From the NCBI RefSeq assembly GCF_000369065.1, contig NZ_KB849800.1, forward strand, positions 303,973 to 367,972: a stretch of 64,000 nucleotides of DNA, in the 5' to 3' direction. This DNA is from Acinetobacter haemolyticus CIP 64.3 = MTCC 9819. Lineage in GTDB: Bacteria > Pseudomonadota > Gammaproteobacteria > Pseudomonadales > Moraxellaceae. Positions 30,701 to 44,035 of the stretch are shown piece after piece. A program made the position numbers and the translations under genes. The stretch's first letter is position 1; each line of letters begins with the position of its first letter. The notes below the pieces were generated by a model that saw only the letters and a program-made list of their open reading frames with translations, was not told the DNA's origin and ran no database searches.

Positions 30701-31159
30701 CTAATTAATTGAAAAATAGAGTGGTGGAGCTCGACCTTGGGGCAGAAGGAAAAGACGTTGTAAATCAAAAAAGAAGCTAAGGAAAAGCTGTTGCAAGTGA
30801 ACATAACGCACTTGTATACGGACAAAGACTTCTTGAATACCTAATGTCGGCGGTACAACCAATTGTCCATAGAAAAAACAGAATGGGCATTGATGGTTAA
30901 TATCATGCTGATGGGTATGATCGATGGCATCAGATGTGACATGATCAACTGTGCTGGCATGATGATGCTCAGAATGAGATCGAGAAACGATGGATGAGTT
31001 TTGTGTACCGTGATGATGTCGAGATTGGGATGACAGATGCACAACAGTCTCACAAGCTGGAGAAATTTGAAACTTCTCTGGCAAAAGAGGCTGCAGAAAA
31101 ACAGCAAGTTGTAGTGTGATGGTTGCAAAAGCAAACCATATCCCAAGTCGATGTATCAA
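30701..31159 (-). CDS. Histidine-rich DUF2946-like protein
   Basis: This 152-residue protein has an N-terminal membrane or signal segment (LGIWFAFATITLQLAVFLQPLL). A His-rich middle part follows (SRHHHGTQ, SHSEHHHAS, DHTHQHDINHQ), then a CPFC motif and a hydrophobic C-terminal half. This arrangement resembles DUF2946 proteins, often found near copper or metal handling genes, and suggests periplasmic metal binding. It sits between cydA and the VIT1-like transporter gene on the same strand, but more than 150 bases from each, so an operon is not shown. Confidence 0.6.
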   Translation of the reverse strand: MIHRLGIWFAFATITLQLAVFLQPLLPEKFQISPACETVVHLSSQSRHHHGTQNSSIVSRSHSEHHHASTVDHVTSDAIDHTHQHDINHQCPFCFFYGQLVVPPTLGIQEVFVRIQVRYVHLQQLFLSFFFDLQRLFLLPQGRAPPLYFSIN

Positions 31160-32275: not shown

Positions 32276-33502
32276 TTGAGATATGTGATGAAAAAATCAA
32301 AAAAACAATTACTCAGTCATACCTTGTTTACGTTAAGCCTTTTGTTTCCATTACAAGCGGTTATGAGTGCTGAAGCTGATTTCGTAAAAGAAGGTGATGC
32401 AGCTTATAAACCTGGCAATCCAATTTATGATCGATGGGATCAGTTTTATAAATTAGAACAACAGCAGCCAGAGCAGGCGGAAAAAATTCTGCTCGAACTT
32501 GCAGCACTTACCCCACAAGATATTAAAGTGTGGAAAAGTCTGACTTATTTACAAATTCGTTTGAATAAACAAGATCAGGCTTTACACAGCGTTCGTAAAG
32601 CATCGCAACTTGCACCTCAGGATGATCAACTTAAGCTACAAGAAGCATATTTGTTGAATCAACTGAAGAGAGATAGAGAAGCTTTACCAATATTCAAAAT
32701 GCTGGCTCAGTCAAATGATGTAGAAATCGCAACTAAAGCGCAGCAAGCAGTACAGAATTTAAGTGGTGGGACAGTCAAACCTGTATTCAAAGATATTTAT
32801 TTTGCACCGTCTTATGAGTCGCGTTACGACGATTTTATTTTTCCGTTAAAAATGCGTTATGGACGTAATTTGGACAATGGTCGTGCACAGGTTTATGGCT
32901 TTATGAATCTAAATCGTGATACTAAATCACGTGGTGGCGTTCGACCTGAAATCATTGATGAGAATGCGGTGACGGTTGGTGTAGGGGCAAATTATCAGCC
33001 TTGGCTAAGTATACCGGTTAGAGCCTATTTAGAATTAGGTGGTAGTTATGACTTAATTGATCGTAATCGAGATAAGTTCCGTGAGAGTGTTGTTGGCGGT
33101 GTAACAGGTTATCAAGAATGGTACGCAAATCCGAGTGTAGAAAATCGCACGGTTTGGAATGATTATTTCACCGACCTGTATGGTAACGTGGCTAGTTATT
33201 CACGTGAAGATTATAACGTCATTGCAGATTTAAGATTACGCTCAGGTTTTAATGTTTACCGAGGTGAAACGGGAACTGTACAAGCCTATGCCAAATTACA
33301 TGCTTTGGCAGATTCTGAAGGTGAGAATTATAATAATTTATTTGAATACGGTGCTGGTGTTGCGTGGCAACCGTTTAATTATGTGCCTGTAAAAGTACGT
33401 GTAGAGCGTTTATATGGCCACTATTTCAAAGATGCATTGGCGAATGGACAAGATCGTTATAACAACACTCGAACGGAACTGGTATTTTATAAGAGTTTCT
33501 AA
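32276..33502 (+). CDS. TPR-beta-barrel outer membrane protein, NfrA/BcsC-like exopolysaccharide exporter
   Basis: This precursor of about 408 residues (404 if the ATG at 32288, MKKSKKQLL, is used) has a signal peptide ending near VMSA. Three TPR-like helical pairs follow (residues about 45-150, LLELAALTPQDIKVWKSL and related repeats). The C-terminal beta-barrel begins around IYFAPSYESRYDDF and ends with a terminal Phe (ELVFYKSF). This layout resembles BcsC, PgaA and the C-terminal part of NfrA, which pass polymer through the outer membrane. It faces the - strand synthase operon across a shared terminator, so it is the likely export pore of that locus. It is much shorter than BcsC. Confidence 0.7.
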   Translation: MRYVMKKSKKQLLSHTLFTLSLLFPLQAVMSAEADFVKEGDAAYKPGNPIYDRWDQFYKLEQQQPEQAEKILLELAALTPQDIKVWKSLTYLQIRLNKQDQALHSVRKASQLAPQDDQLKLQEAYLLNQLKRDREALPIFKMLAQSNDVEIATKAQQAVQNLSGGTVKPVFKDIYFAPSYESRYDDFIFPLKMRYGRNLDNGRAQVYGFMNLNRDTKSRGGVRPEIIDENAVTVGVGANYQPWLSIPVRAYLELGGSYDLIDRNRDKFRESVVGGVTGYQEWYANPSVENRTVWNDYFTDLYGNVASYSREDYNVIADLRLRSGFNVYRGETGTVQAYAKLHALADSEGENYNNLFEYGAGVAWQPFNYVPVKVRVERLYGHYFKDALANGQDRYNNTRTELVFYKSF

Positions 33503-33507
33503 GATCT

Positions 33508-33538
33508 AGGCTGTCTTAGTGAAGAAACAGCCTTGTTT
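33508..33538. terminator. Bidirectional terminator between exporter gene and synthase operon
   Basis: AGGCTGT and ACAGCCT form a 7-bp stem with a 12-base loop between convergent genes. Confidence 0.6.
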
Positions 33539-34419
33539 TATGAGCGATATTTAAGCTTATACCATAAGGCAATCATATAGACATTGATACGGCTCATATA
33601 GTGGGGGCCATCAAAGATATAAACTTTTTGTCCCTCGTACGCTTTCAATTGTTGGATAATTTCCCAAGGATATGCAGCTCGAAAGTGTCCATTTTTGGTT
33701 GCTCGAAATGCTTCTAAAACAATAGTAATTTTATCTTTACCAAATTCATGTTGCAGCTCATCTAATATGATCCTTGCTTGTTCAGGTGAACGAGTGCCAA
33801 CACCAACGCCATCTTGAAAAAAAACATTGGTCTGCTCAGGCAACCAACTTTTTAACCATACATCGTAATGTGTTGGCATTTCATCTGCGCTATAAATGCT
33901 CACCCATAAAGGTTTTGGAAGTTGCGTTAAAGCTTGACCTAATATTCCTACACCTAACCAAGTTGGATCGGCCTCAACTGGAAAATAATATCCTTTGAGT
34001 GGGATCGATTGAGTATGTGCAATCAGTTGTTTAGAGTTTTGAGCAAGCAACATGACTTGAGAGCGCGCCAGCTTTTCATCATATTCGCCTGCTAAACCTA
34101 GAATAATCTCCGATGCCCACGCATTTTGGTTTAGCTGTTGAAGATTTATATTTTTATCCCACTTTACAAAGCCAGTATCATGATCAAACCAAGATTTGGA
34201 TTGAACAATTGACCATTGTGGAACAAATGTAGAAACCCCGAGTAGGTTCCAGTTGCCTTTGGGTGGGGTGGTAGCTAAATCTGGTTGCCAAAAAATTCCT
34301 TCAATATGAGCAGGCTGCATTTCAGATTGAGAAAAATGTATGCAGCCGCCCAAAAAAATTATGGTTGAAAAAAAGAAAATAATAATGAGTTTGAAATTAT
34401 TCTGCCTTATTTTTAGCAT
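33538..34419 (-). CDS. DUF4434-like TIM-barrel lipoprotein (putative glycosidase)
   Basis: This 293-residue protein has a lipoprotein signal (IIIFFFSTIIFLGGC, Cys26), so it is probably membrane anchored in the periplasm. The mature part begins GIFWQPDLA and includes LKGYYFPVEADP and IFFQDGVGVG, with Asp and Glu residues placed as in glycosidase-like TIM barrels of the DUF4434 type. By analogy with BcsZ or PslG it might trim the polymer made by the linked synthase. The gene overlaps the end of the BcsB-like gene by 23 bases and is the last of the operon. Confidence 0.65.
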   Translation of the reverse strand: MLKIRQNNFKLIIIFFFSTIIFLGGCIHFSQSEMQPAHIEGIFWQPDLATTPPKGNWNLLGVSTFVPQWSIVQSKSWFDHDTGFVKWDKNINLQQLNQNAWASEIILGLAGEYDEKLARSQVMLLAQNSKQLIAHTQSIPLKGYYFPVEADPTWLGVGILGQALTQLPKPLWVSIYSADEMPTHYDVWLKSWLPEQTNVFFQDGVGVGTRSPEQARIILDELQHEFGKDKITIVLEAFRATKNGHFRAAYPWEIIQQLKAYEGQKVYIFDGPHYMSRINVYMIALWYKLKYRS

Positions 34420-36190
34420 TCGGTTTTTTTCGCCAGTACCAAAGCAAGATTGCCAAAATCATAATAGCAGAAATGATAAGCACCAAGATAAAGAAAGATG
34501 ACTGCTGAACCAGAGGTGCTTTTTGATTACCGACAATAATTTTTTGTAAAGTAAAGACTTGACCGTTCTGTGTCACCAAGATTTTACTGGCGTTATTGGG
34601 AATATTTTGTTGAATTTTCTCCCAAAACTTCGTGAAGTTTTGAGCGCCATCAATGGAGTCCGTCAAAACATCAAAACGTTGTTCATGAAAACGCACTAAA
34701 AAACCCTTAGCCGCAGCAGGTGCATAAACAGTATCTCGATGCATAGAGACTTGCTGGCGATAAATATTAGGATTGACTTGAACATTAATTAATTCGGGCT
34801 TTGCTGGGTCAAATTTGACGAAATTCAATGGCAATGGATCATTGGTCAGTAGCATTCGTTTTGCTGTTTGACTCAAAATTAGCGCAATTTCTAAACTACC
34901 AGGTTCGCCATCAATCGCAATGGTTGGATGTGTGGCAAATGCCATCGATAGTGATGCCACACCATTTTTGAGTTTATGTGGTAATTTGACCGTGGATTTC
35001 TCAGTATCAATCCATAAAGAGCCTTTTGCTGTAGGTAAACATTGTGAGTTTACGATCACAGAATTTTCGAGTTTTAAGTGAAATGATGTGCTATTTGAAA
35101 TGGTTTTTGCGAAATAGTTAAATTGACGATTTACAGGGTCAGAATCTAATTCTGCAGTTTTCAGACTACCTGCCAATCCACCATCAATCCAAGTGGTGAT
35201 ATTAGAGCCTTCTAATAAGCCACTCTGGACGCGTAACGCAATTTGTCCTTGCAAAATATCTGTAGGTTGCCAAACAGCAGGGAAGTTGAGGAACAGGTTT
35301 CTTTCAGCTTGGTTGAGTCGAAAATCACTGATGCCTAAATCCGCCAATGTTTTAATCTGTTTGATTTTTGCCCATGTTGGTGCTGCAAGTTTATCGGGTA
35401 GAAACGTGGCAGAAGTATTGAGTTGCTCTAAGTAATTTGGATTGAGTAATCCGTTAATTGCTGAGACTAGTTTTTGAGGGTGATCATATTTAATTTGCAA
35501 AGTTGGCACATTATTTTCAGAACTAATCTGAACTAAAGTACCTTGAGATAGCGGTGTAGGCGATTTTGAAATTTCAATTAAGAAATCGGCGGCTTGGCCA
35601 GTTGGTGGATTTTGTTCATACCATTGGACAGGGGTAACAGATCCCCATGCGTTCATGAGACGACCGAGCATCGATGCTTCATTGACATTGGCAGGGTTGA
35701 ATTTGAGTACGCCTACGAATGGTGTAGGTCTGACAATTTGTGGATTAAATAAGGCATCGGGCAGATCTTTTAAACGATAGACTGGTCGATGTCGTGCATA
35801 GTCAATTTTTGAGTTACTTAAATACGTGACTTGATCAATATCTTCGCTACAGAAGGTTGTACGATCAGCAGCTGGCGAGGTTCGGGGTGAATATTGCTGT
35901 AAAATAAAGTCTAAGCGATGAAAACCACTATCAGCAGCGGGAATATTAAATTCCAGTTTACCATCACCGTTTAACACAGTGTTATAAATCAACTTATCAT
36001 CATATTTCACCAGTAAAGTAGTGAAATGTTCAGTCGAATAATCGCTGCTAAAACGAATACTTTGCCACTCAGAACCCTTACCTACATAGAAGTAGTGTGG
36101 CTCGATCGTGTATTTGTTTGACGTATTAATATTATCAAATTTCCATGTATTCCAAGAATCTGCTAGAGCAAATACGGGCAAAGAGAGAGT
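34397..36190 (-). pseudogene. BcsB-like periplasmic polysaccharide synthase partner, 3' part, split by IS66
   Basis: This is about 600 residues of a protein resembling the cellulose synthase partner BcsB: a large periplasmic beta-rich region, then a C-terminal membrane anchor (FFILVLIISAIMILAILLWYW) with a basic tail. The reading frame has no ATG here. It continues in frame across the IS66 element to an ATG at 38743. The insertion separates the first 18 codons of the signal peptide from the rest, so export is probably lost. A TTG at 36181 could start a signal-less protein. The 3' end overlaps the DUF4434-like gene. Confidence 0.75.
36183..36190. repeat. IS66 target site duplication, left copy
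   Basis: GAGAGAGT directly before the left end of the IS66 element; the same octamer follows the right end at 38682. Confidence 0.95.
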
Positions 36191-36221
36191 GTAAGCGTCC
36201 GCTGAATCCCATACCTATTTT

Positions 36222-37805
36222 TTAATTCGATTTAGGTTTCCAGCAGTGCGGCAGCAATTCTTCAATTTGGGTCACTTTGTGTGTCGGTAACCTTTTCAGC
36301 ACATCACTTAAATAGGCATACGGATCCAAGCCATTCAGCTTTGCTGACTGGATTAAAGTCATGATGTTTGCCGCTCGCTGACCACTGCGCAGCGAACCTG
36401 CAAACAGCCAGTTCTTGCGTCCCAACGCCCAGGGACGCATCTGATTCTCTACCCAATTGTTGCATATCGGTAGATTGCCATCATCCAGATAGCGGCTTAA
36501 GGCTGGCCAACGCTTCAGAGTGTAATTGATAGCCTTGGCGGTGGGAGAACTCGATGGCACTGTCAGATGATGTTGGTTGAGCCATTCATATAGTTGTTGC
36601 ATCACTGGTTGACTATGCTGTTGTCGGTATTCGCGGCGGTCTTCCGCTGTACCATCGGTCTTTTTCCTGAGTTCTGCTTCTATCGCATACAGTTTCTGAA
36701 TCAGCACTAAGGCCTGTTCAGCAACCTGACTTTTCCCAGTTACATGCAGTTCATGGAATTTACGACGTGCATGGGCCATGCACCCCACCTCAATCACCTG
36801 GCCTGATTTAAAACGTGCTTTATAACCACTGTAATCATCACAGACTAGATAGCCCTGCCAGCCTTTCAAGAACTCTTCAGCATGCTGGCCTGAACGACTA
36901 TCCTGAAAGTCATAGATCACCGCCTGAACTGGATTATACTGTGTGGTGGCATAGGCCCAGACATAACCTTTCTTCGGTTTTTTATTATTCTCACCCATCC
37001 GCATGATGGTGACCGGTGTTTCATCTGCATGCAGCACCCGCTGTTGCAGCACCACCTCTTTTAAGGCATTGGCCAGAGGTTCCAGTTCTACACCGCAGCG
37101 ACCTATCCAGTCAGATAAAGTGGATCTGGACAGATCAATGCCAGCCCGCTGATAGATCAGGCGCTGACGGTACAGCGGCAAATGATCGGCATACTTCGAT
37201 ACCAGCACATGGCTGAGCAATTCAGGTGAAGCAATGCCTTTATCAATCACATAGGCGGGCATCGCTTGCTGAGTTAGAGTGTCACACTGATCACAGACCC
37301 ATTTACCACGCACATGCTGTTCCTTATAGAACTGTGCCGGTCTGAAATGCAGTTTTTCACTGACATCTTCGCCGATACGACGGAGTTGGCAGCCACAAGC
37401 ACATTGGGTTGATGCAGGTTCATGCTCAATACGGATGGTGTGTAGATGATCTGGCAGTGGTCGACGTTTAGGTTTATTGGTTTTGGCTTTCTGTGTCGCT
37501 GCATTGGTTTTATCTGCATTTAGCCGTTCCAGTTCTAGATCAACCGCGGCAATATCTTCTTCAACCGCTTCATCCCACAGATGGATTTGTTTTGCCGTTA
37601 AGTGTTCATTCTTTTGGGCGAATTTGTGCTTTTTAAACAGCGCCAGTTCATGCTCGTATTTTTGATTGAGAATAGAAAGATGTTGAACTTTGGCATCCAA
37701 TTGTTGGTTTGATTGTGCTAGAGACTGATGCTGCAGCGCCAACTGCCTGGTGAATTCCAGCAGTTGTTCATGGGTCAGTTGGCTTAAGTCAGGCAGCGTA
37801 TTCAT
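36222..37805 (-). CDS. tnpC: IS66 transposase TnpC
   Basis: This 527-residue DDE transposase has an N-terminal coiled-coil-like leader (QHQSLAQSNQQLDAKVQHLS) and a zinc-finger-like region with paired Cys (CACGC, VCDQC). The catalytic core has an Asp in LHADETPV, an Asp in VCDDYSGY and a Glu in NNWVENQMRPW. It is intact and of normal length for IS66, so the element should be able to move. Confidence 0.95.
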   Translation of the reverse strand: MNTLPDLSQLTHEQLLEFTRQLALQHQSLAQSNQQLDAKVQHLSILNQKYEHELALFKKHKFAQKNEHLTAKQIHLWDEAVEEDIAAVDLELERLNADKTNAATQKAKTNKPKRRPLPDHLHTIRIEHEPASTQCACGCQLRRIGEDVSEKLHFRPAQFYKEQHVRGKWVCDQCDTLTQQAMPAYVIDKGIASPELLSHVLVSKYADHLPLYRQRLIYQRAGIDLSRSTLSDWIGRCGVELEPLANALKEVVLQQRVLHADETPVTIMRMGENNKKPKKGYVWAYATTQYNPVQAVIYDFQDSRSGQHAEEFLKGWQGYLVCDDYSGYKARFKSGQVIEVGCMAHARRKFHELHVTGKSQVAEQALVLIQKLYAIEAELRKKTDGTAEDRREYRQQHSQPVMQQLYEWLNQHHLTVPSSSPTAKAINYTLKRWPALSRYLDDGNLPICNNWVENQMRPWALGRKNWLFAGSLRSGQRAANIMTLIQSAKLNGLDPYAYLSDVLKRLPTHKVTQIEELLPHCWKPKSN

Positions 37806-37879
37806 GACCGCAGTATGCCTGAGGTCATGAGAAGAATGAAATAGAACGTTTGGAGAATAGCAGAATGGTCGAGCCTGGT

Positions 37880-38215
37880 TTAAAGCATCGTCACCACCTG
37901 CTGTCGTCCAATGCGCTGCCAGGGCAAACCTTGGATCAGTGCCTGTAACTGTTCCGGGCTGAGGGCCACGGTTTCACCTTGGTGAACTTGAGCCCAGTGA
38001 AATTTGCCCTGTTCCAGCCGCCGGGCACACAGCCAGATGCCCAATCCATCATGTACCAGCACTTTCATGCGATGGCCACGTTTATTACAGAACAGGTAAG
38101 CACAATGCGGTTTGATGTAGCCAAAGGCTCTCACCACCTGAGCCATGGTCGTATCCATACCTGCACGCATGTCCATGGGCTGAGTAGACAACCAGATTTC
38201 ATCAATGCGGATCAT
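37880..38215 (-). CDS. tnpB: IS66 accessory protein TnpB
   Basis: This 111-residue protein starts at MIRIDEIWLSTQPMDMRAG and continues with CNKRGHRMKVLVHDGLGIWLCARRLE, the standard signature of IS66 Orf2. It overlaps the tnpA stop by four bases. The longer frame upstream runs into tnpA and is not needed. Confidence 0.93.
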   Translation of the reverse strand: MIRIDEIWLSTQPMDMRAGMDTTMAQVVRAFGYIKPHCAYLFCNKRGHRMKVLVHDGLGIWLCARRLEQGKFHWAQVHQGETVALSPEQLQALIQGLPWQRIGRQQVVTML

Positions 38216-38595
38216 GTTGCAAGTGCCTTGAGTAATTCTGCCAAGGCAGGTATTTCTGATGTCTGCCATTTTAGCTGAATATCATTATTCGTATGAGGCA
38301 CGGTGATACACAACGTGATCCTCTCATCAATAGGTTGGCTGATTGCAGCAGTGTAAGGCAAAGCAATAAATGCTGGATTCACATGAGTAGGATCCTGCAC
38401 GGCACCCTCATGATGGCTGAAGATCCTGATCCAACGACTGACAAGGTTGGCATTAATACTATGTTGCAGTGCGACCGAAGCGATCGAGGTATTAGGATTT
38501 TTGCAGGCATTGACAATACTGAGTTTGAATTCTTTGCTGTATTTTCGGCGTTTTTTAGCAACAGGAGGTGTTGCTGAATATATATCCATGTTCAT
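38212..38595 (-). CDS. tnpA: IS66 accessory protein TnpA
   Basis: This 127-residue protein has a helix-turn-helix region (KRRKYSKEFKLSIVNACKN, then SIASVALQHSINANLVSRWIRIF), as in IS66 Orf1 proteins that recognise the element ends. It is the first gene of the tnpABC unit and is repeated identically at 41921-42304. Confidence 0.93.
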   Translation of the reverse strand: MNMDIYSATPPVAKKRRKYSKEFKLSIVNACKNPNTSIASVALQHSINANLVSRWIRIFSHHEGAVQDPTHVNPAFIALPYTAAISQPIDERITLCITVPHTNNDIQLKWQTSEIPALAELLKALAT

Positions 38596-38681
38596 GGATT
38601 AAGTCCCCACTTGTTTTTAGGTGGGAACTAAATTAAGGCTTATAGGATCGCTTGGTAAGGCTGTGTTAGCCGGATGCTTAC

Positions 38682-38743
38682 GAGAGAGTCGCACTTGCTA
38701 ACAGAATTTTGAAAACAGGATGGTTGAGTCGATTTTTTTTCAT
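38682..38743 (-). pseudogene. BcsB-like gene, 5' fragment with start codon and signal-peptide n-region
   Basis: From the ATG at 38743, directly after the synthase stop, the - strand reads MKKNRLNHPVFKILLASA and then enters the 8-bp duplication. Joining it to the 3' part after deleting the IS and one duplication gives ...LLASATLSLPVFALADSW, a normal signal peptide, in frame. Positions 38682-38689 are the right copy of the target duplication. Confidence 0.9.
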
Positions 38744-39994
38744 TTATTTTCTCTCTTTGCTACGTTCAGTTTTGTACCACTGTAGTGAATTCCCTTGTAT
38801 CTTATTTTTCAACATGTCGTAGGCTGCTTTAAATACGATGAATAAAAAGATCTGTGAATATGTGATGTAAGATAAAACTGAAAAGAAATAAAGTTGGGGT
38901 TTAACTCTTTCAAGCGATAGGGTGAACCACATTTGTGCGACATATAAACAAAATGATAATGCCCATAACACTGTAAATGGTCCGGGTAAGGTGATCCCCG
39001 CTATGCCAAGTAAGCCAAGTGTTAGAGTGATATGACTCCAAATCAGCGCAGGTACGAATAGGACATAACACATTATGTTGTTGAAAATTTCGATACCAAT
39101 TGGAAAAGGTTTTCTTAATGCAATCGGTAGATATTTACTGGTCACATAGAAATTACCTTGAGTCCAACGTGATCGTTGTTTGACAAAAACACTCAGTGAT
39201 GGCGGGTCTTGTTGCCAACCTACGGCATAAGGTACCCATTTGATTCGCTTTTGCCCTAGAAAGATTCTGAAGCTCATTTCAGTGTCATCAACCAATGATT
39301 TTTCATCAAATCCTCCCAATGTTTCTAGTGCATCCCGCCATATGACATAGTTGGTTCCCATCAAGGTCGATAATTCAAAACGTTGCCATCGGCCTCCTTG
39401 GAAGATCCATTGAAAGAAAATAAACTCGATGGCAATAAAGCGAGTCAAAATACTATCGCGCCAATTTCGGGTGCGGACTTTGCCATTGACGGCAACCAGT
39501 TTTTTATCTGCCAATAAGGTTTGAGCCAATAGTCGAACGCAGTCTGGTTCGGGCGTACTATCGGCATCATAGACAATAATTAACTCACCTTTGGCATGAG
39601 GTAGACCATTGTTTAAGGTCCGAGATTTACCTTTACCTCCCATACCTTTCGGGACATTCACAATTTTAATGCACGGATAAATCTCCGCCATGCGTTCAGC
39701 GATCTCAAGAGTATTGTCTTTAGAGCCGTCATTGATTAATAACACTTCATAGGCATGTGCAGGGTAGTCTTGTTGCGCAATGGCATGGAGCGTATCTTCA
39801 ATCACTACACCTTCGTTATAGGCTGGGATCAAGACACTGAGCATTGGCCACTCAGCGGGCACAGGCAAATTTTCTAACTCTTTGGCTGCATTTTTCGAGT
39901 ATTTCCATGCCTGATAACTTAACCACGCCCAAAAAGCTTGTGGAATCCAAATACCAAGAAAACCAAACAAAAATAGAATATCAATCGCGGGCAT
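38744..39994 (-). CDS. Processive family 2 glycosyltransferase (exopolysaccharide synthase)
   Basis: This 416-residue inner-membrane enzyme has N-terminal and C-terminal membrane helices around a GT2 core. The full processive motif set is present: nucleotide-sugar Asp in INDGSKDNT, DxD in YDADSTPE, acceptor-binding DDTE (LVDDTEMS) and the terminal QxxRW as KQRSRWTQG. It therefore polymerises and extrudes a glycan like BcsA, PgaC or hyaluronan synthase. There is no PilZ domain. The sugar is unknown. It overlaps the preceding gene by 14 bases, and the BcsB-like start follows its stop directly. Confidence 0.88.
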   Translation of the reverse strand: MPAIDILFLFGFLGIWIPQAFWAWLSYQAWKYSKNAAKELENLPVPAEWPMLSVLIPAYNEGVVIEDTLHAIAQQDYPAHAYEVLLINDGSKDNTLEIAERMAEIYPCIKIVNVPKGMGGKGKSRTLNNGLPHAKGELIIVYDADSTPEPDCVRLLAQTLLADKKLVAVNGKVRTRNWRDSILTRFIAIEFIFFQWIFQGGRWQRFELSTLMGTNYVIWRDALETLGGFDEKSLVDDTEMSFRIFLGQKRIKWVPYAVGWQQDPPSLSVFVKQRSRWTQGNFYVTSKYLPIALRKPFPIGIEIFNNIMCYVLFVPALIWSHITLTLGLLGIAGITLPGPFTVLWALSFCLYVAQMWFTLSLERVKPQLYFFSVLSYITYSQIFLFIVFKAAYDMLKNKIQGNSLQWYKTERSKERK

Positions 39995-40886
39995 TGAGTC
40001 TTCTCCTACGAATGATAGAGATGATTAAAATCAAAAGTAATGACCCACCAAGCAACAGCGAAATCCAAGAAACTGAACTACCAAAACTACTTAATAAACT
40101 AGGAAAATGGGTTGAAAAAAGATAGTCAAATGGAATCACAACAGTACTGATTGCAATTAAGAAATAACCAAATAGATTGGTTTCAACTCCGTCAGGGGTA
40201 CTGGTGTAATCAACACGACCAAAACGCCATGATATTCCCAATTGGGGATATTCTATGCTGTTCACAGGCAAGTGTGCTGGAGGATTAATTAAAATTTGAT
40301 AGCCAGAGTTTTGAGCATAGTTATGATTGGCTTGATAAAAGAAGTGCTGATGATGTTGGATCTTACGTGCGGGTATTGGTAGGTTTTGTTTATTATCCGA
40401 TTGAATGATATAGCTACCCGCAGGTTGTGAGATGAGGTTTTCATCCCAGCCTGTTTCAATCAATGTCGCTAATGGTCTCAGACCAATTGCGGTAGAAAAA
40501 GTGGCTTTGGCAGAAAAGTACTTCGAATGTTCCATGTGAAAGAGCGCGATAGGAATTGCGCCGTCATTGACAGCTTTTTTTATCCGATAGTAGGTTAAAA
40601 AACTAAAATACTCATCTGGTAAAATAACGCCTGGTTTTACACCTTTATCAATAAGCTCTTTAAAACTATTCGATTGGAGTTGATCTGCTGTAAAAACGGG
40701 CCACCATGTTGCAGGCTGAGAAAAGATCTCTGAAACCATTTCAGAAGATTGAATATGTGGACTTGACTCTGATTTTGCTGGTTGAATTGAGCAGTGATAA
40801 TACTGCTGATAAAGTTGTTGTAAAGTCATGTCTGGGTAATGTTCGGTTGCAACCAGCAGACCACAAATATTAAGAAGTACTGACAT
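39981..40886 (-). CDS. Unknown membrane protein of the exopolysaccharide operon
   Basis: I do not recognise this 301-residue protein. A soluble region of about 220 residues (PGVILPDEYFSFLTYYRIKKA, PIALFHMEHSKYF) is followed by two C-terminal hydrophobic segments, about residues 232-250 and 272-290, and a strongly basic end (IIRRRRLNARD). The N-terminus (MSVLLNICGLLVATEH) is weakly hydrophobic. It starts one base inside the stop of the upstream gene (TGATG) and overlaps the synthase gene, so its product is made with the synthase. It may be a synthase-associated periplasmic or membrane factor; no function is claimed. Confidence 0.7.
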   Translation of the reverse strand: MSVLLNICGLLVATEHYPDMTLQQLYQQYYHCSIQPAKSESSPHIQSSEMVSEIFSQPATWWPVFTADQLQSNSFKELIDKGVKPGVILPDEYFSFLTYYRIKKAVNDGAIPIALFHMEHSKYFSAKATFSTAIGLRPLATLIETGWDENLISQPAGSYIIQSDNKQNLPIPARKIQHHQHFFYQANHNYAQNSGYQILINPPAHLPVNSIEYPQLGISWRFGRVDYTSTPDGVETNLFGYFLIAISTVVIPFDYLFSTHFPSLLSSFGSSVSWISLLLGGSLLLILIISIIRRRRLNARD

Positions 40887-41635
40887 CAGTGCACCTCTCG
40901 GTCTACTTGTGACAGGTATTCTGTATGTTGTTCGACTTTAAGTTTTAAAACATTCAGCTCTTGTAGTTGTTGTAGGAAATGTGACGTAGGGTGTTGCTCA
41001 TCCATTTGATTTTCATGAATTACGATACTTTTTATTTCACTCAACTCTTCATTGATGAAATGATAGATAATACTATCACCCTCAGTGGATAAGATCGTCA
41101 TAATCTTATTTTGAGTTTCTTTCCAAATATCTTCACCAAGCATTTCTCGAATGAGCACGGTGTTGGTAATTTGAATACTGATCACTTCATAATGATTTTT
41201 ATGAGTCAACTGTAATAGTTTTTTTAGCTGGTCCTGAAAGTGCTTGAGTGCAGTAAGCGGTAAAATATCATGTTGATAATTTCTGTCATAACTTTGAATA
41301 GCTCGATAAGAGGCCAAGGCATTTTTAATATTGTGACGGATCGCACTAAGAAAAACTGGCGCGAGCGGCGCTACAAATAATAGGAGCAGTTGACGCTCGA
41401 TATAAGTTTGATTGGCGAGATCAAGAAAGAAATAGAACGCAATACCGACAAATGCCACCAAACCGAGTATTAATGCCATACCAATATTTAAGTATGCACC
41501 TGCGATGACCAACAATAGCAAGAAAATCCAACTGCCTCGATAAGTTGCTGGCAGCCATTCATAAGCCACTACACCCATGAAGATATGAGCCGAAATGATC
41601 CATAAGACGAGTGCGGGAGCAGGATTTTTTTGCAT
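40886..41635 (-). CDS. Membrane protein with degenerate GGDEF-like domain, first gene of exopolysaccharide operon
   Basis: From the ATG at 41635 this is 249 residues. Four hydrophobic segments lie in the first 115 residues (PALVLWIISAHIFMGVVAY, IFLLLLVIAGAYLNIG, and others). A cytosolic domain follows whose helix and strand pattern (LKHFQDQLKKLLQLTHKNHYEVISIQITN, IREMLGEDIWKETQNKI) resembles diguanylate cyclase domains but lacks the GGDEF signature. A c-di-GMP or protein-interaction role like that of PelD or similar regulators is only inferred. The frame upstream of 41635 lies in IS66 sequence and is artificial. The ribosome site was probably altered by the insertion. Confidence 0.6.
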   Translation of the reverse strand: MQKNPAPALVLWIISAHIFMGVVAYEWLPATYRGSWIFLLLLVIAGAYLNIGMALILGLVAFVGIAFYFFLDLANQTYIERQLLLLFVAPLAPVFLSAIRHNIKNALASYRAIQSYDRNYQHDILPLTALKHFQDQLKKLLQLTHKNHYEVISIQITNTVLIREMLGEDIWKETQNKIMTILSTEGDSIIYHFINEELSEIKSIVIHENQMDEQHPTSHFLQQLQELNVLKLKVEQHTEYLSQVDREVH

Positions 41636-41645
41636 AGTAATTTTA

Positions 41646-41653
41646 GTTTTAAT
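41646..41653. repeat. Target site duplication of the 737-bp IS66 derivative, left copy
   Basis: GTTTTAAT occurs here and again directly after the right end at 42391-42398, the 8-bp size typical of IS66. Confidence 0.9.
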
Positions 41654-41924
41654 GTAACTGTTCCGGGCTGAGGGCCACGGTTTCACCTTGGTGAACTTGA
41701 GCCCAGTGAAATTTGCCCTGTTCCAGCCGCCGGGCACACAGCCAGATGCCCAATCCATCATGTACCAGCACTTTCATGCGATGGCCACGTTTATTACAGA
41801 ACAGGTAAGCACAATGCGGTTTGATGTAGCCAAAGGCTCTCACCACCTGAGCCATGGTCGTATCCATACCTGCACGCATGTCCATGGGCTGAGTAGACAA
41901 CCAGATTTCATCAATGCGGATCAT
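41649..41924 (-). pseudogene. tnpB: Truncated IS66 tnpB
   Basis: The first 90 or so residues of TnpB (from MIRIDEIWLS) are identical to the complete copy. After SPEQL the frame leaves the element and stops within the flanking duplication, losing about 20 C-terminal residues. Confidence 0.9.
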
Positions 41925-42390
41925 GTTGCAAGTGCCTTGAGTAATTCTGCCAAGGCAGGTATTTCTGATGTCTGCCATTTTAGCTGAATATCATTATTCG
42001 TATGAGGCACGGTGATACACAACGTGATCCTCTCATCAATAGGTTGGCTGATTGCAGCAGTGTAAGGCAAAGCAATAAATGCTGGATTCACATGAGTAGG
42101 ATCCTGCACGGCACCCTCATGATGGCTGAAGATCCTGATCCAACGACTGACAAGGTTGGCATTAATACTATGTTGCAGTGCGACCGAAGCGATCGAGGTA
42201 TTAGGATTTTTGCAGGCATTGACAATACTGAGTTTGAATTCTTTGCTGTATTTTCGGCGTTTTTTAGCAACAGGAGGTGTTGCTGAATATATATCCATGT
42301 TCATGGATTAAGTCCCCACTTGTTTTTAGGTGGGAACTAAATTAAGGCTTATAGGATCGCTTGGTAAGGCTGTGTTAGCCGGATGCTTAC
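41654..42390 (-). mobile_element. 737-bp internally deleted IS66 derivative
   Basis: It is identical to positions 37945-38681 of the complete element and keeps the authentic right end. Its left end is GTAACTGTTCC instead of GTAAGCGTCC. Both the real left end and this internal site begin GTAA, so a 1754-bp deletion between two GTAA repeats of a full copy would create it exactly. Alternatively the internal GTAAC was used as a substitute end. It carries intact tnpA and a shortened tnpB and lies about 18 bases or less before the first gene of the exopolysaccharide operon. Confidence 0.92.
41921..42304 (-). CDS. tnpA: IS66 accessory protein TnpA (copy in the 737-bp derivative)
   Basis: This 127-residue protein is identical to the copy in the complete element. 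It could still bind IS66 ends, and the derivative may be moved in trans by the complete element 3 kb away. Confidence 0.9.
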   Translation of the reverse strand: MNMDIYSATPPVAKKRRKYSKEFKLSIVNACKNPNTSIASVALQHSINANLVSRWIRIFSHHEGAVQDPTHVNPAFIALPYTAAISQPIDERITLCITVPHTNNDIQLKWQTSEIPALAELLKALAT

Positions 42391-42481
42391 GTTTTAATAT
42401 TGTCTTTTGTGATAAAAGTAGCACTATTTTATAGTGATTGCGATAGTTTTATGTTGTTGACTTTGTCAAGTAATTTATAGT

Positions 42482-42537: not shown

Positions 42538-43968
42538 CTATTCTTTAAAAGCGGCGATAGCCCGTGCTCGGCTACTTTTTAAATCAACGATTGGTATTGG
42601 ATAGTTAAGACTAGAATTCATTTTGTAAGCGTAAGGCTCATGGATGGATTTAGCATCTAAATGAGCAAGTTCGGGAATCCATTGTCGTAAATAGTCGCCA
42701 TTTGGATCAAATTTTTGTGATTGGCTAATTGGATTAAATATACGGAAATACGGTGCAGCATCGGTACCTGTTGAAGCACACCATTGCCAGCCACCATTGT
42801 TTGCAGCTAGATCACCATCTATAAGGTGCTGCATAAACCATTGTTCCCCTTTTCGCCAATCAATCAAAAGATTTTTACTCAGAAACATGGCGCAAATCAT
42901 ACGTACTCGATTGTGCATCCAACCTGTTGCAAGGAGTTGTCGCATACCTGCATCGACGATTGGAATACCGGTATGACCCTGTTGCCATTGTTGCAGCGCA
43001 ACTGGATCATCACACCAGTTGATTTTTTGGGTTGAAAGCTGAAATGGTAAGTGTTTTGAAACACGTGGGTAGTCGAACAAAATATGCTGATAAAATTCTC
43101 GCCAGAGTAGTTCATCCAGCCATGTTTGCTGGCCTTCAGACTCAATCACAAAATCGCCATGTTGTTTACGGAATAGTGCCTGTAGACATTGACGGATAGA
43201 GAGAATGCCAATATTTAAATAAGCAGATAGTTGGCTGGTGCCTGCTTGTGCAGGGAAGTCGCGGGCATTTTTATAATCGTCCAATCTGTCATGGATAAAT
43301 TGATCGAGTAATGTTAATGCATAGGATTCGCCTACTGGCCATTGTTGTGTTAGATGATTAAGTTGCTGAGTATATTTAAGTTGTAGCTCTTTGAAATCTT
43401 CAAGTGAGGGGTACGGATCGATGTTGATCGGCTGCTGCCCTTCAGGTACTGGATAGCATTGGGGTAAGCTTTGTTGCAAGCGTTGATAACAGACTTTTTT
43501 AAAAGCACTAAAAACTTGATAGGGCTGATGGCTCTGATTACGAATCGACGCTACTGGAAAAAGTGTACGGTCATGAAAAAGTACCAGTTCTTTGTTTTGT
43601 TGGTTTAATAATTTTTGTACCTCGTTATCTCGTTTTAGTTCATTAACCCCTAGTTCAATATTGGCATATACCTGCTGAATTGGGATATTTTGCATTAAAT
43701 CTGCAAAGAGCTGTGTTATATCTTTCCAAAGTGGTAAATGCTGAACAATTAAAGGAATATTGAGAGATTGCAACGCAATTTGTAATTGTTGTAGTTGACG
43801 AAGATAGAAGTCGATTTTTATGGGTGCATCATCATGTAGTTGCCATTGTTCAGGTGACAAGATCACTAGCGCAACTGTAGGCCCTGTTTGTGTTGCATGC
43901 CAAAGGGCGGCATGGTCATGGATTCTGAGATCTTGGCGAAACCAAATCAGTTGATAATCGCTTTGCAT
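42538..43968 (-). CDS. phrB: Deoxyribodipyrimidine photolyase (CPD photolyase)
   Basis: This 476-residue flavoenzyme repairs cyclobutane pyrimidine dimers with blue light. The N-terminal antenna domain begins with QLIWFRQDLRIHDH. The FAD domain shows LDELLWREFYQHILFDYP, DAGMRQLLATGWMHNRVRM and the tryptophan-rich NGGWQWCASTGTDAAPYFRIFNP, the photolyase signature. The ATG at 43968 is preferred over one six codons upstream because it gives the standard N-terminus. It is transcribed away from the FKBP gene region, alone. Confidence 0.95.
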   Translation of the reverse strand: MQSDYQLIWFRQDLRIHDHAALWHATQTGPTVALVILSPEQWQLHDDAPIKIDFYLRQLQQLQIALQSLNIPLIVQHLPLWKDITQLFADLMQNIPIQQVYANIELGVNELKRDNEVQKLLNQQNKELVLFHDRTLFPVASIRNQSHQPYQVFSAFKKVCYQRLQQSLPQCYPVPEGQQPINIDPYPSLEDFKELQLKYTQQLNHLTQQWPVGESYALTLLDQFIHDRLDDYKNARDFPAQAGTSQLSAYLNIGILSIRQCLQALFRKQHGDFVIESEGQQTWLDELLWREFYQHILFDYPRVSKHLPFQLSTQKINWCDDPVALQQWQQGHTGIPIVDAGMRQLLATGWMHNRVRMICAMFLSKNLLIDWRKGEQWFMQHLIDGDLAANNGGWQWCASTGTDAAPYFRIFNPISQSQKFDPNGDYLRQWIPELAHLDAKSIHEPYAYKMNSSLNYPIPIVDLKSSRARAIAAFKE

Positions 43969-44035
43969 AAAGTAAGAACCACTCAATTTATTCGAAGTAA
44001 GGTATCTTTCTTATTTTATAAAAGTGAATGTGAAG

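What the first reader, a model, noticed from the sequence alone, without database searches (positions are those of the whole stretch)
32276..41635. Unusual synthase-dependent exopolysaccharide locus
A processive GT2 synthase, a BcsB-like periplasmic protein, a DUF4434-like lipoprotein, a degenerate GGDEF-like membrane protein and an unknown two-helix membrane protein are translationally coupled. A short TPR/beta-barrel exporter is encoded convergently. The parts correspond to those of cellulose, PNAG, Pel or the N4 phage receptor glycan systems, but this combination matches none I know: there is no PilZ domain, no deacetylase, and the outer membrane protein is far smaller than BcsC or PgaA. 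It could make a polymer not yet described.
Basis: inference. Interest (0 to 1): 0.75.

Follow-up and report, generated by a model that had tools for sequence, protein, structure and literature searches.

The report
Broken Acinetobacter phage-receptor glycan locus
This is an Acinetobacter haemolyticus-group copy, lacking one gene, of a gene cluster (PGR) named in 2025 and proposed to make a surface sugar chain that broad-range phages use as their receptor; here two jumping-gene insertions sit inside it and are predicted to switch it off, and intact relatives that lack the same gene likely borrow the missing sugar-making enzyme from their capsule genes.

Summary
The genes are real, but the combination is known: it is the Acinetobacter PGR locus (PMC12507263, 2025), required for adsorption of phage StAb3. 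The finding does not mention that this copy carries two IS66 insertions. A full IS66 (8-bp target duplication) splits the BcsB-like gene pgrD after about 20 codons; a 737-bp mini-IS66 (another 8-bp duplication) lies 18 bp upstream of pgrA. A near relative is intact.

The copy also lacks pgrF, the WecB epimerase gene of the published seven-gene locus, as do 12 of 42 named relatives with pgrD. Of 45 PGR-bearing genomes, all 13 without pgrF carry a WecB-type epimerase elsewhere, against 12 of 32 with pgrF and 37 of 104 without PGR. The tree needs at least seven changes of pgrF state. This supports, without proving, UDP-ManNAc as precursor. PgrE's nearest relative among 13 E. coli exopolysaccharide proteins is YbcH of the N4-receptor operon, which the PGR paper's main text does not mention.

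The polymer's structure is unknown. Whether the insertions reflect phage selection or an IS66 burst is open: the genome has 14 near-identical full copies.

The parts
32288..33502 (+). pgrG: short TPR plus beta-barrel outer membrane protein (404 aa), convergent to pgrE
   Evidence: weak TPR hits; model with TPR helices and about 12 strands, pLDDT 81, pTM 0.56; best Foldseek match BcsC 9b8a, E 2.2e-8, TM 0.28; found at 42 of 43 named loci
33538..34419 (-). pgrE: YbcH/DUF4434-like periplasmic lipoprotein
   Evidence: PF14488 and PRK09936 below cut-off; E. coli YbcH is a PRK09936 protein; hhalign to YbcH 95.9%; six invariant acidic residues in 19 sequences
34397..36182 (-). pgrD, part 3' of the IS66 insertion (BcsB-like)
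   Evidence: 594-aa frame against 615 aa intact in relatives; PF03170 in 6 of 24 family members
36183..36190 (.). 8-bp target duplication (ACTCTCTC), copy 1
36191..38681 (-). full-length IS66-family element (tnpA, tnpB, tnpC) inside pgrD
   Evidence: PF03050 2.9e-105; 14 near-identical full copies in the genome, this one included
38682..38743 (-). pgrD, 5' fragment of about 20 codons, ending in target duplication copy 2 (38682-38689)
38744..39994 (-). pgrC: processive GT2 polysaccharide synthase
   Evidence: PF13641 1.5e-31; hhalign to PgaC 99.7%, BcsA 98.1%, NfrB 62.1%; catalytic motifs in 40 of 40 relatives scanned
39981..40886 (-). pgrB: unassigned membrane protein, extracytoplasmic domain plus two C-terminal helices
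   Evidence: AlphaFold2 pLDDT 83, pTM 0.76; no credible Pfam match
40886..41635 (-). pgrA: multi-helix membrane protein with a cytoplasmic domain, no GGDEF motif
41646..41653 (.). 8-bp target duplication (ATTAAAAC) of the mini-IS66, pgrA side
41654..42390 (-). mini-IS66 (737 bp), identical to one end of the full element, 18 bp upstream of the pgrA ATG
42391..42398 (.). 8-bp target duplication (ATTAAAAC) of the mini-IS66, far side

Best explanation
The locus is an A. haemolyticus-group copy of the Acinetobacter PGR locus that lacks pgrF and carries two IS66 insertions, so that it would be predicted to make no glycan in this strain, while intact copies likely make and export a ManNAc-containing surface polymer used by StAb3-like phages as receptor. 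Inferred mechanism of an intact copy: a non-hydrolysing UDP-GlcNAc 2-epimerase makes UDP-ManNAc. In this genome the only PF02350 protein is the one in the capsule (K) locus, so the sugar donor would be shared with capsule synthesis, as the N4 receptor of E. coli borrows WecB from the ECA cluster. PgrC polymerises the sugar and moves the chain across the inner membrane together with the BcsB-like PgrD. PgrE, the YbcH/DUF4434 protein, probably handles or trims the chain in the periplasm. PgrG passes it through the outer membrane. PgrA and PgrB are membrane proteins whose role (control or assembly) is not known. Shown here: gene content and order, both insertions with their target duplications, intact relatives, and the repeated absence of pgrF together with an epimerase elsewhere. 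Shown in print for A. baumannii: pgrD is needed for StAb3 adsorption. Inferred: the sugar, the export route, the loss of function in this strain.
For: pgrA-E with pgrG in the same order in named relatives: of 43 loci, pgrA-C in 43, pgrD in 42, pgrE in 41, pgrG in 42, matching the published set. Both IS66 copies have 8-bp duplications and the relative L022 is collinear without them. All 13 of 45 PGR genomes lacking pgrF have an epimerase elsewhere, against 12 of 32 with pgrF and 37 of 104 without PGR; all 13 match the wecB model TIGR00236; pgrF state needs at least 7 changes on the PgrD tree, and in 7 independent pairs a high-scoring epimerase elsewhere goes with pgrF absence in 6.2 on average and against it in 0. 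A. tjernbergiae (L038) keeps a 38-residue pgrF remnant, so at least there the change is a loss. The own epimerase lies beside a tviB-type dehydrogenase gene and wza. PgrE is related to YbcH of the N4-receptor operon.
Against: No sugar or phage assay. pgrF, part of the published locus, is absent. With 'any other epimerase' instead of the high-scoring class (a line drawn after seeing the list) the pair test is weaker (4.6 with, 0 against, median p 0.06). Fisher p values ignore kinship. PgrD's own sequence has no BcsB hit, and its family profile matches neither E. coli BcsB nor a PDB chain. PgrG's profile does not match NfrA, PgaA or BcsC by hmmsearch. In G083 the epimerase has neither wza nor a dehydrogenase gene beside it. 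The shared-donor idea cannot hold for this strain while pgrD is interrupted.
Confidence: 0.75

Rival explanations
1. One reading: a synthase-dependent system making a polymer that is not ManNAc-based (for example of GlcNAc or glucose), with pgrF an optional helper.
For: PgrC is nearest to PgaC among the E. coli synthases compared, whose product is PNAG; pgrF is absent in 12 of 42 named loci with pgrD; no structure of the glycan is known.
Against: An epimerase elsewhere accompanies pgrF absence in 13 of 13; in print, a pgrF point mutation gives StAb3 resistance, restored by complementation, and wecB alone of the ECA cluster is needed for N4 in E. coli (passages).
Confidence: 0.2
2. The two insertions are by-products of an IS66 burst and say nothing about phage selection.
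For: 14 near-identical full IS66 copies in this genome.
Against: Two insertions in one locus of about 9 kb; laboratory StAb3 escape mutants of A. baumannii MC47.2 carry IS4-family insertions in pgrD, and some natural A. baumannii loci carry transposases; pgrD is also split in two other genomes of the 45 (G100, G110).
Confidence: 0.45
3. pgrF-less loci are decaying: pgrF loss is a first step of pseudogenisation, not a hand-over to another epimerase.
For: 6 of 43 named loci have at least one broken pgr gene; L038 has both a pgrF remnant and a pgrD frameshift; the window's pgrF-less copy is interrupted too.
Against: 11 of the 12 pgrF-less named loci that carry pgrD have all six other genes as single full-length frames (L022, L026-L030, L033, L035, L037, L049, L063); decay does not predict an epimerase elsewhere in 13 of 13.
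Confidence: 0.12

Closest known systems
Acinetobacter PGR locus (pgrA-G; PMC12507263, PLoS Pathog 2025)
   Same: Gene set and order pgrA-E with a convergent pgrG; A. nosocomialis loci L046 and L048 have all seven genes in the same photolyase-VIT1 interval.
   Different: No pgrF in the locus; full IS66 in pgrD and mini-IS66 before pgrA. The paper's main text mentions neither haemolyticus nor YbcH nor PgrB.
E. coli N4 glycan receptor system (nfrB-nfrA-ybcH plus wecB)
   Same: GT2 synthase, TPR/barrel exporter, YbcH-type periplasmic protein (PgrE), epimerase encoded outside the operon, proposed ManNAc polymer used as phage receptor.
   Different: [quoted passage not shown] NfrA 990 aa against PgrG 404; the nfr operon has no BcsB-like, PgrA-like or PgrB-like gene.
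PNAG system (pgaABCD)
   Same: PgrC is nearest to PgaC (hhalign 99.7%); the PGR paper reports PgrE to resemble the C-terminus of PgaB in structure.
   Different: No deacetylase family hit, no sequence match of PgrE to PgaB or of PgrG to PgaA in the comparison made; PgaA is 807 aa.
Cellulose system (bcsABZC)
   Same: BcsB family in distant PgrD relatives; PgrG's best structural match is BcsC.
   Different: No PilZ hit; no BcsZ-like gene; PgrD profile gives no match to E. coli BcsB.

Membership tests
PGR locus | pgrA-pgrB-pgrC-pgrD-pgrE in one direction with convergent pgrG | tested here: met
   pgrD split by IS66
PGR locus | pgrF (WecB homologue) in the locus | tested here: not met
   35 bp between pgrE and pgrG; absent also in 12 of 42 named loci with pgrD. 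Hence filed as a variant.
PGR locus | intact reading frames | tested here: not met
   IS66 in pgrD, mini-IS66 before pgrA
PGR locus | needed for adsorption of StAb3-like phages | not testable with these tools
   shown in print for A. baumannii
E. coli N4 receptor (Nfr/NGR) system | MshEN c-di-GMP domain on the synthase | tested here: not met
   PgrC 416 aa, only GT2-type domains in Pfam; NfrB 745 aa
E. coli N4 receptor (Nfr/NGR) system | YbcH-type periplasmic protein | tested here: met
   hhalign 95.9%, hmmsearch 1.9e-4; both match PRK09936, PgrE below its cut-off
E. coli N4 receptor (Nfr/NGR) system | dependence on a WecB epimerase | tested here: inconclusive
   co-occurrence supports it; no experiment
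PNAG system | CE4 deacetylase (PgaB N-terminus) | tested here: inconclusive
   [not shown]
Cellulose system | PilZ domain on the synthase | tested here: not met
   no PilZ hit
Cellulose system | BcsB-family periplasmic subunit | tested here: inconclusive
   6 of 24 family members hit PF03170, best 1.8e-6; the window protein does not
Diguanylate-cyclase-like regulator (PgrA) | GGDEF motif or family hit | tested here: not met
   motif in 0 of 22; no GGDEF family among hits of 22 members; fold not tested here

The most novel reading that the evidence does not exclude
In pgrF-less Acinetobacter species the phage-receptor glycan runs on UDP-ManNAc made by the capsule locus, so that exchanging the capsule locus for one without wecB would remove the receptor of capsule-independent, broad-range phages at the same stroke: capsule type would decide susceptibility to phages thought to ignore capsule.
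Probability: 0.35. Interest if true: 0.68.

Novelty: new variant of a known kind. Interest (0 to 1): 0.45.

Why it matters
PGR is the receptor of phages noted for crossing capsule types. A comparison across species that supports ManNAc as its building block independently of mutants, together with a sequence link (PgrE-YbcH) to the E. coli N4-receptor operon, turns two unknown glycans into one testable problem. The copy in the window is a natural case, outside the A. baumannii complex, of an IS insertion in pgrD, the kind of hit seen in laboratory escape mutants.

Tried and rejected
Deletion upstream of pgrA: I first took the truncated IS66 for the scar of a deletion; the 8-bp duplication and the collinear flanks against L022 show an insertion of a mini-element instead.

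Higher breakage of pgr genes than of neighbours: 6 of 43 named loci have a broken pgr gene (L038, L044, L051, L052, L053, L062). In six flanking genes the script flagged 6 rows; I discounted five by hand (L060 photolyase and L023-L025 PBP5, which have full-length frames, the stop lying in an N-terminal extension of the query; L053 PBP5, a 37%-identical distant protein) and kept one (L040 photolyase, 1 of 32); the other flanking genes had 0 of 31 to 33. Not tested statistically and not used as evidence of selection. L053's pgrE also fell just under the 85% line.

Literature: searches. One paper uses the PGR/pgr names; DUF4434 occurs in none of the held papers. For PMC12507263 I read sections 11, 12 and 33 whole and passages elsewhere; figures and supplements were not seen, so its 20 locus compositions in A. 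baumannii may include pgrF-less ones. For PMC8669469 and PMC8669472 I saw passages only. PMC8669469 already states for nfrB that every species found without a separate wecB pathway has wecB beside nfrB; the rule tested here is the same logic in PGR.
Full report
What is there. The window lies in a 3.5-Mb Acinetobacter genome (G000:C3); the window's PgrD is 99% identical to an A. haemolyticus protein. On the minus strand, between a photolyase gene (42538-43986) and a convergent gene at 32288-33502, lie five genes in the order pgrA, pgrB, pgrC, pgrD, pgrE. Neighbouring frames overlap or abut: pgrA-B at 40886, pgrB-C by 14 bp, pgrC-D as TAAATG before the insertion, pgrD-E by 23 bp. Beyond pgrG lie a VIT1-family gene and cytochrome bd-type genes (the last named from sequence by recall). 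Named relatives share this interval: a photolyase gene is found at 32 of 43 and VIT1 at 31 of 43 loci.

What it is. PMC12507263 (sections 11, 12 and 33 read) describes the PGR locus of A. baumannii: PgrA like diguanylate cyclases without the GGDEF motif, PgrC like NfrB, BcsA and PgaC, PgrD like BcsB, PgrE like the C-terminus of PgaB, PgrF a WecB homologue, PgrG a putative porin. StAb3 escape mutants carry IS4-family insertions in pgrD or a pgrF point mutation, a pgrD deletion abolishes adsorption, and complementation restores infection. The authors propose an uncharacterised ManNAc-containing exopolysaccharide. The relatives found here reproduce the set: A. nosocomialis (L046, L048) has pgrA-E, pgrF and pgrG in the same interval, and its PgrD is 93% identical, over half its length, to a 555-aa A. 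baumannii protein and 63% identical to the A. haemolyticus protein. I did not hold the paper's own A. baumannii locus, so identity with it rests on this gene set. The finding is therefore a known kind of locus, in a variant form.

What this copy lacks. First, pgrF: 35 bp separate pgrE and pgrG. Of 43 named loci, 30 have a pgrF gene (one, L051, with an internal stop) and 13 do not: 11 loci with all other genes (L022, L026-L030, L033, L035, L037, L049, L063), L038 with a 38-residue remnant, and L062, in which nothing after pgrC was found. Second, integrity: a 2491-bp IS66 element sits in pgrD with duplication ACTCTCTC (36183-36190 and 38682-38689), and a 737-bp derivative of the same element sits at 41654-42390 with duplication ATTAAAAC. 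The relative L022 (88-94% identical DNA) is collinear across both points without either insertion. The genome holds 14 near-identical full copies, the one in pgrD included, and one mini copy.

Where the sugar could come from. Of 149 genomes in the genus sample, one per species, 45 have PgrD. All 45 have a PF02350 epimerase; of the other 104, 37 do (82 of 149 in all). By position, 32 of the 45 have it beside pgrD (one, G044, with an internal stop) and 13 have it only elsewhere. Of the 32, 12 have a further copy over the cut-off elsewhere. Counting only a high-scoring class (E<=1e-116, a line drawn after seeing the list) the figures are 13 of 13, 5 of 32 (G044 among them) and 19 of 104. Fisher tests are (1e-4 for 13 of 13 against 12 of 32) and ignore kinship. 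On a PgrD tree (quick method, with long branches) pgrF absence needs 8 changes, at least 7 on starred branches; a change may be a gain or a loss. In 7 independent pairs the high-scoring class goes with pgrF absence in 6.2 on average and against it in 0 (median p 0.03); 'any other epimerase' goes with it in 4.6 and against in 0 (median p 0.06). All 13 epimerases match the non-hydrolysing wecB model, as do all 10 pgrF proteins scanned. Within about 1.5 kb, 12 of 13 have a nucleotide-sugar-dehydrogenase-like gene and 9 of 13 a Wza-like gene; G083 has neither. In this genome the epimerase (TIGR00236, 519 bits against a cut-off of 210) lies between a tviB-type gene and wza, in what looks like the capsule locus. 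PMC8669469 (passages) states the same rule for nfrB, and PMC8669472 (passages) reports that wecB alone of the ECA cluster is needed for N4.

How the parts would work. PgrC has the motifs of processive GT2 enzymes in 40 of 40 relatives scanned; the three loci with a shortened pgrC frame were left out of that set. PgrE's only relative among 13 E. coli proteins of the nfr, pga and bcs clusters is YbcH (hmmsearch 1.9e-4, hhalign 95.9%), itself the PRK09936/DUF4434 protein; PgaB gave no match there, while the paper reports structural likeness. Six acidic residues are invariant in 19 PgrE sequences, which fits but does not show a hydrolase; in E. coli YbcH is dispensable for N4 infection. PgrG models as TPR helices plus about 12 strands (pTM 0.56), with BcsC as best match at a low TM-score of 0.28. 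PgrD is BcsB-like only through its distant relatives. PgrA and PgrB remain without an assigned function.

Verdict. New, as far as the searches and the parts of the papers read show, are the repeated absence of pgrF together with an epimerase elsewhere, the YbcH link of PgrE, and the double insertion. Open are the structure of the glycan, whether intact pgrF-less copies work, and why the insertions arose.

Noticed in passing
window 41654-42390: A 737-bp mini-IS66 with one true end and an internal sequence (ending GTTAC) used as the other end, bounded by an 8-bp duplication: it seems to have moved as a unit using a pseudo-end. One copy in the genome.
   Followed up: partly
L053 (Lampropedia hyalina DSM 16112): A PGR-like locus outside Acinetobacter with PgrC 76-78% identical, in the order pgrG-pgrF-pgrA-E all on one strand, its pgrC frame broken.
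   Followed up: no
L057 and L058 (contig JAUXVU010000018.1, Moraxellaceae MAG): Two PGR-like loci about 16 kb apart on one contig, the second without a detectable pgrE.
   Followed up: no
L044 (A. seifertii NIPH 973): pgrD split by an insert of about 2.4 kb that reads mostly N: a second species with an interrupted pgrD.
   Followed up: no
window 30701-31159 (minus): A His-rich 152-aa frame between the cytochrome bd-type genes and the VIT1-family gene; not examined.
   Followed up: no
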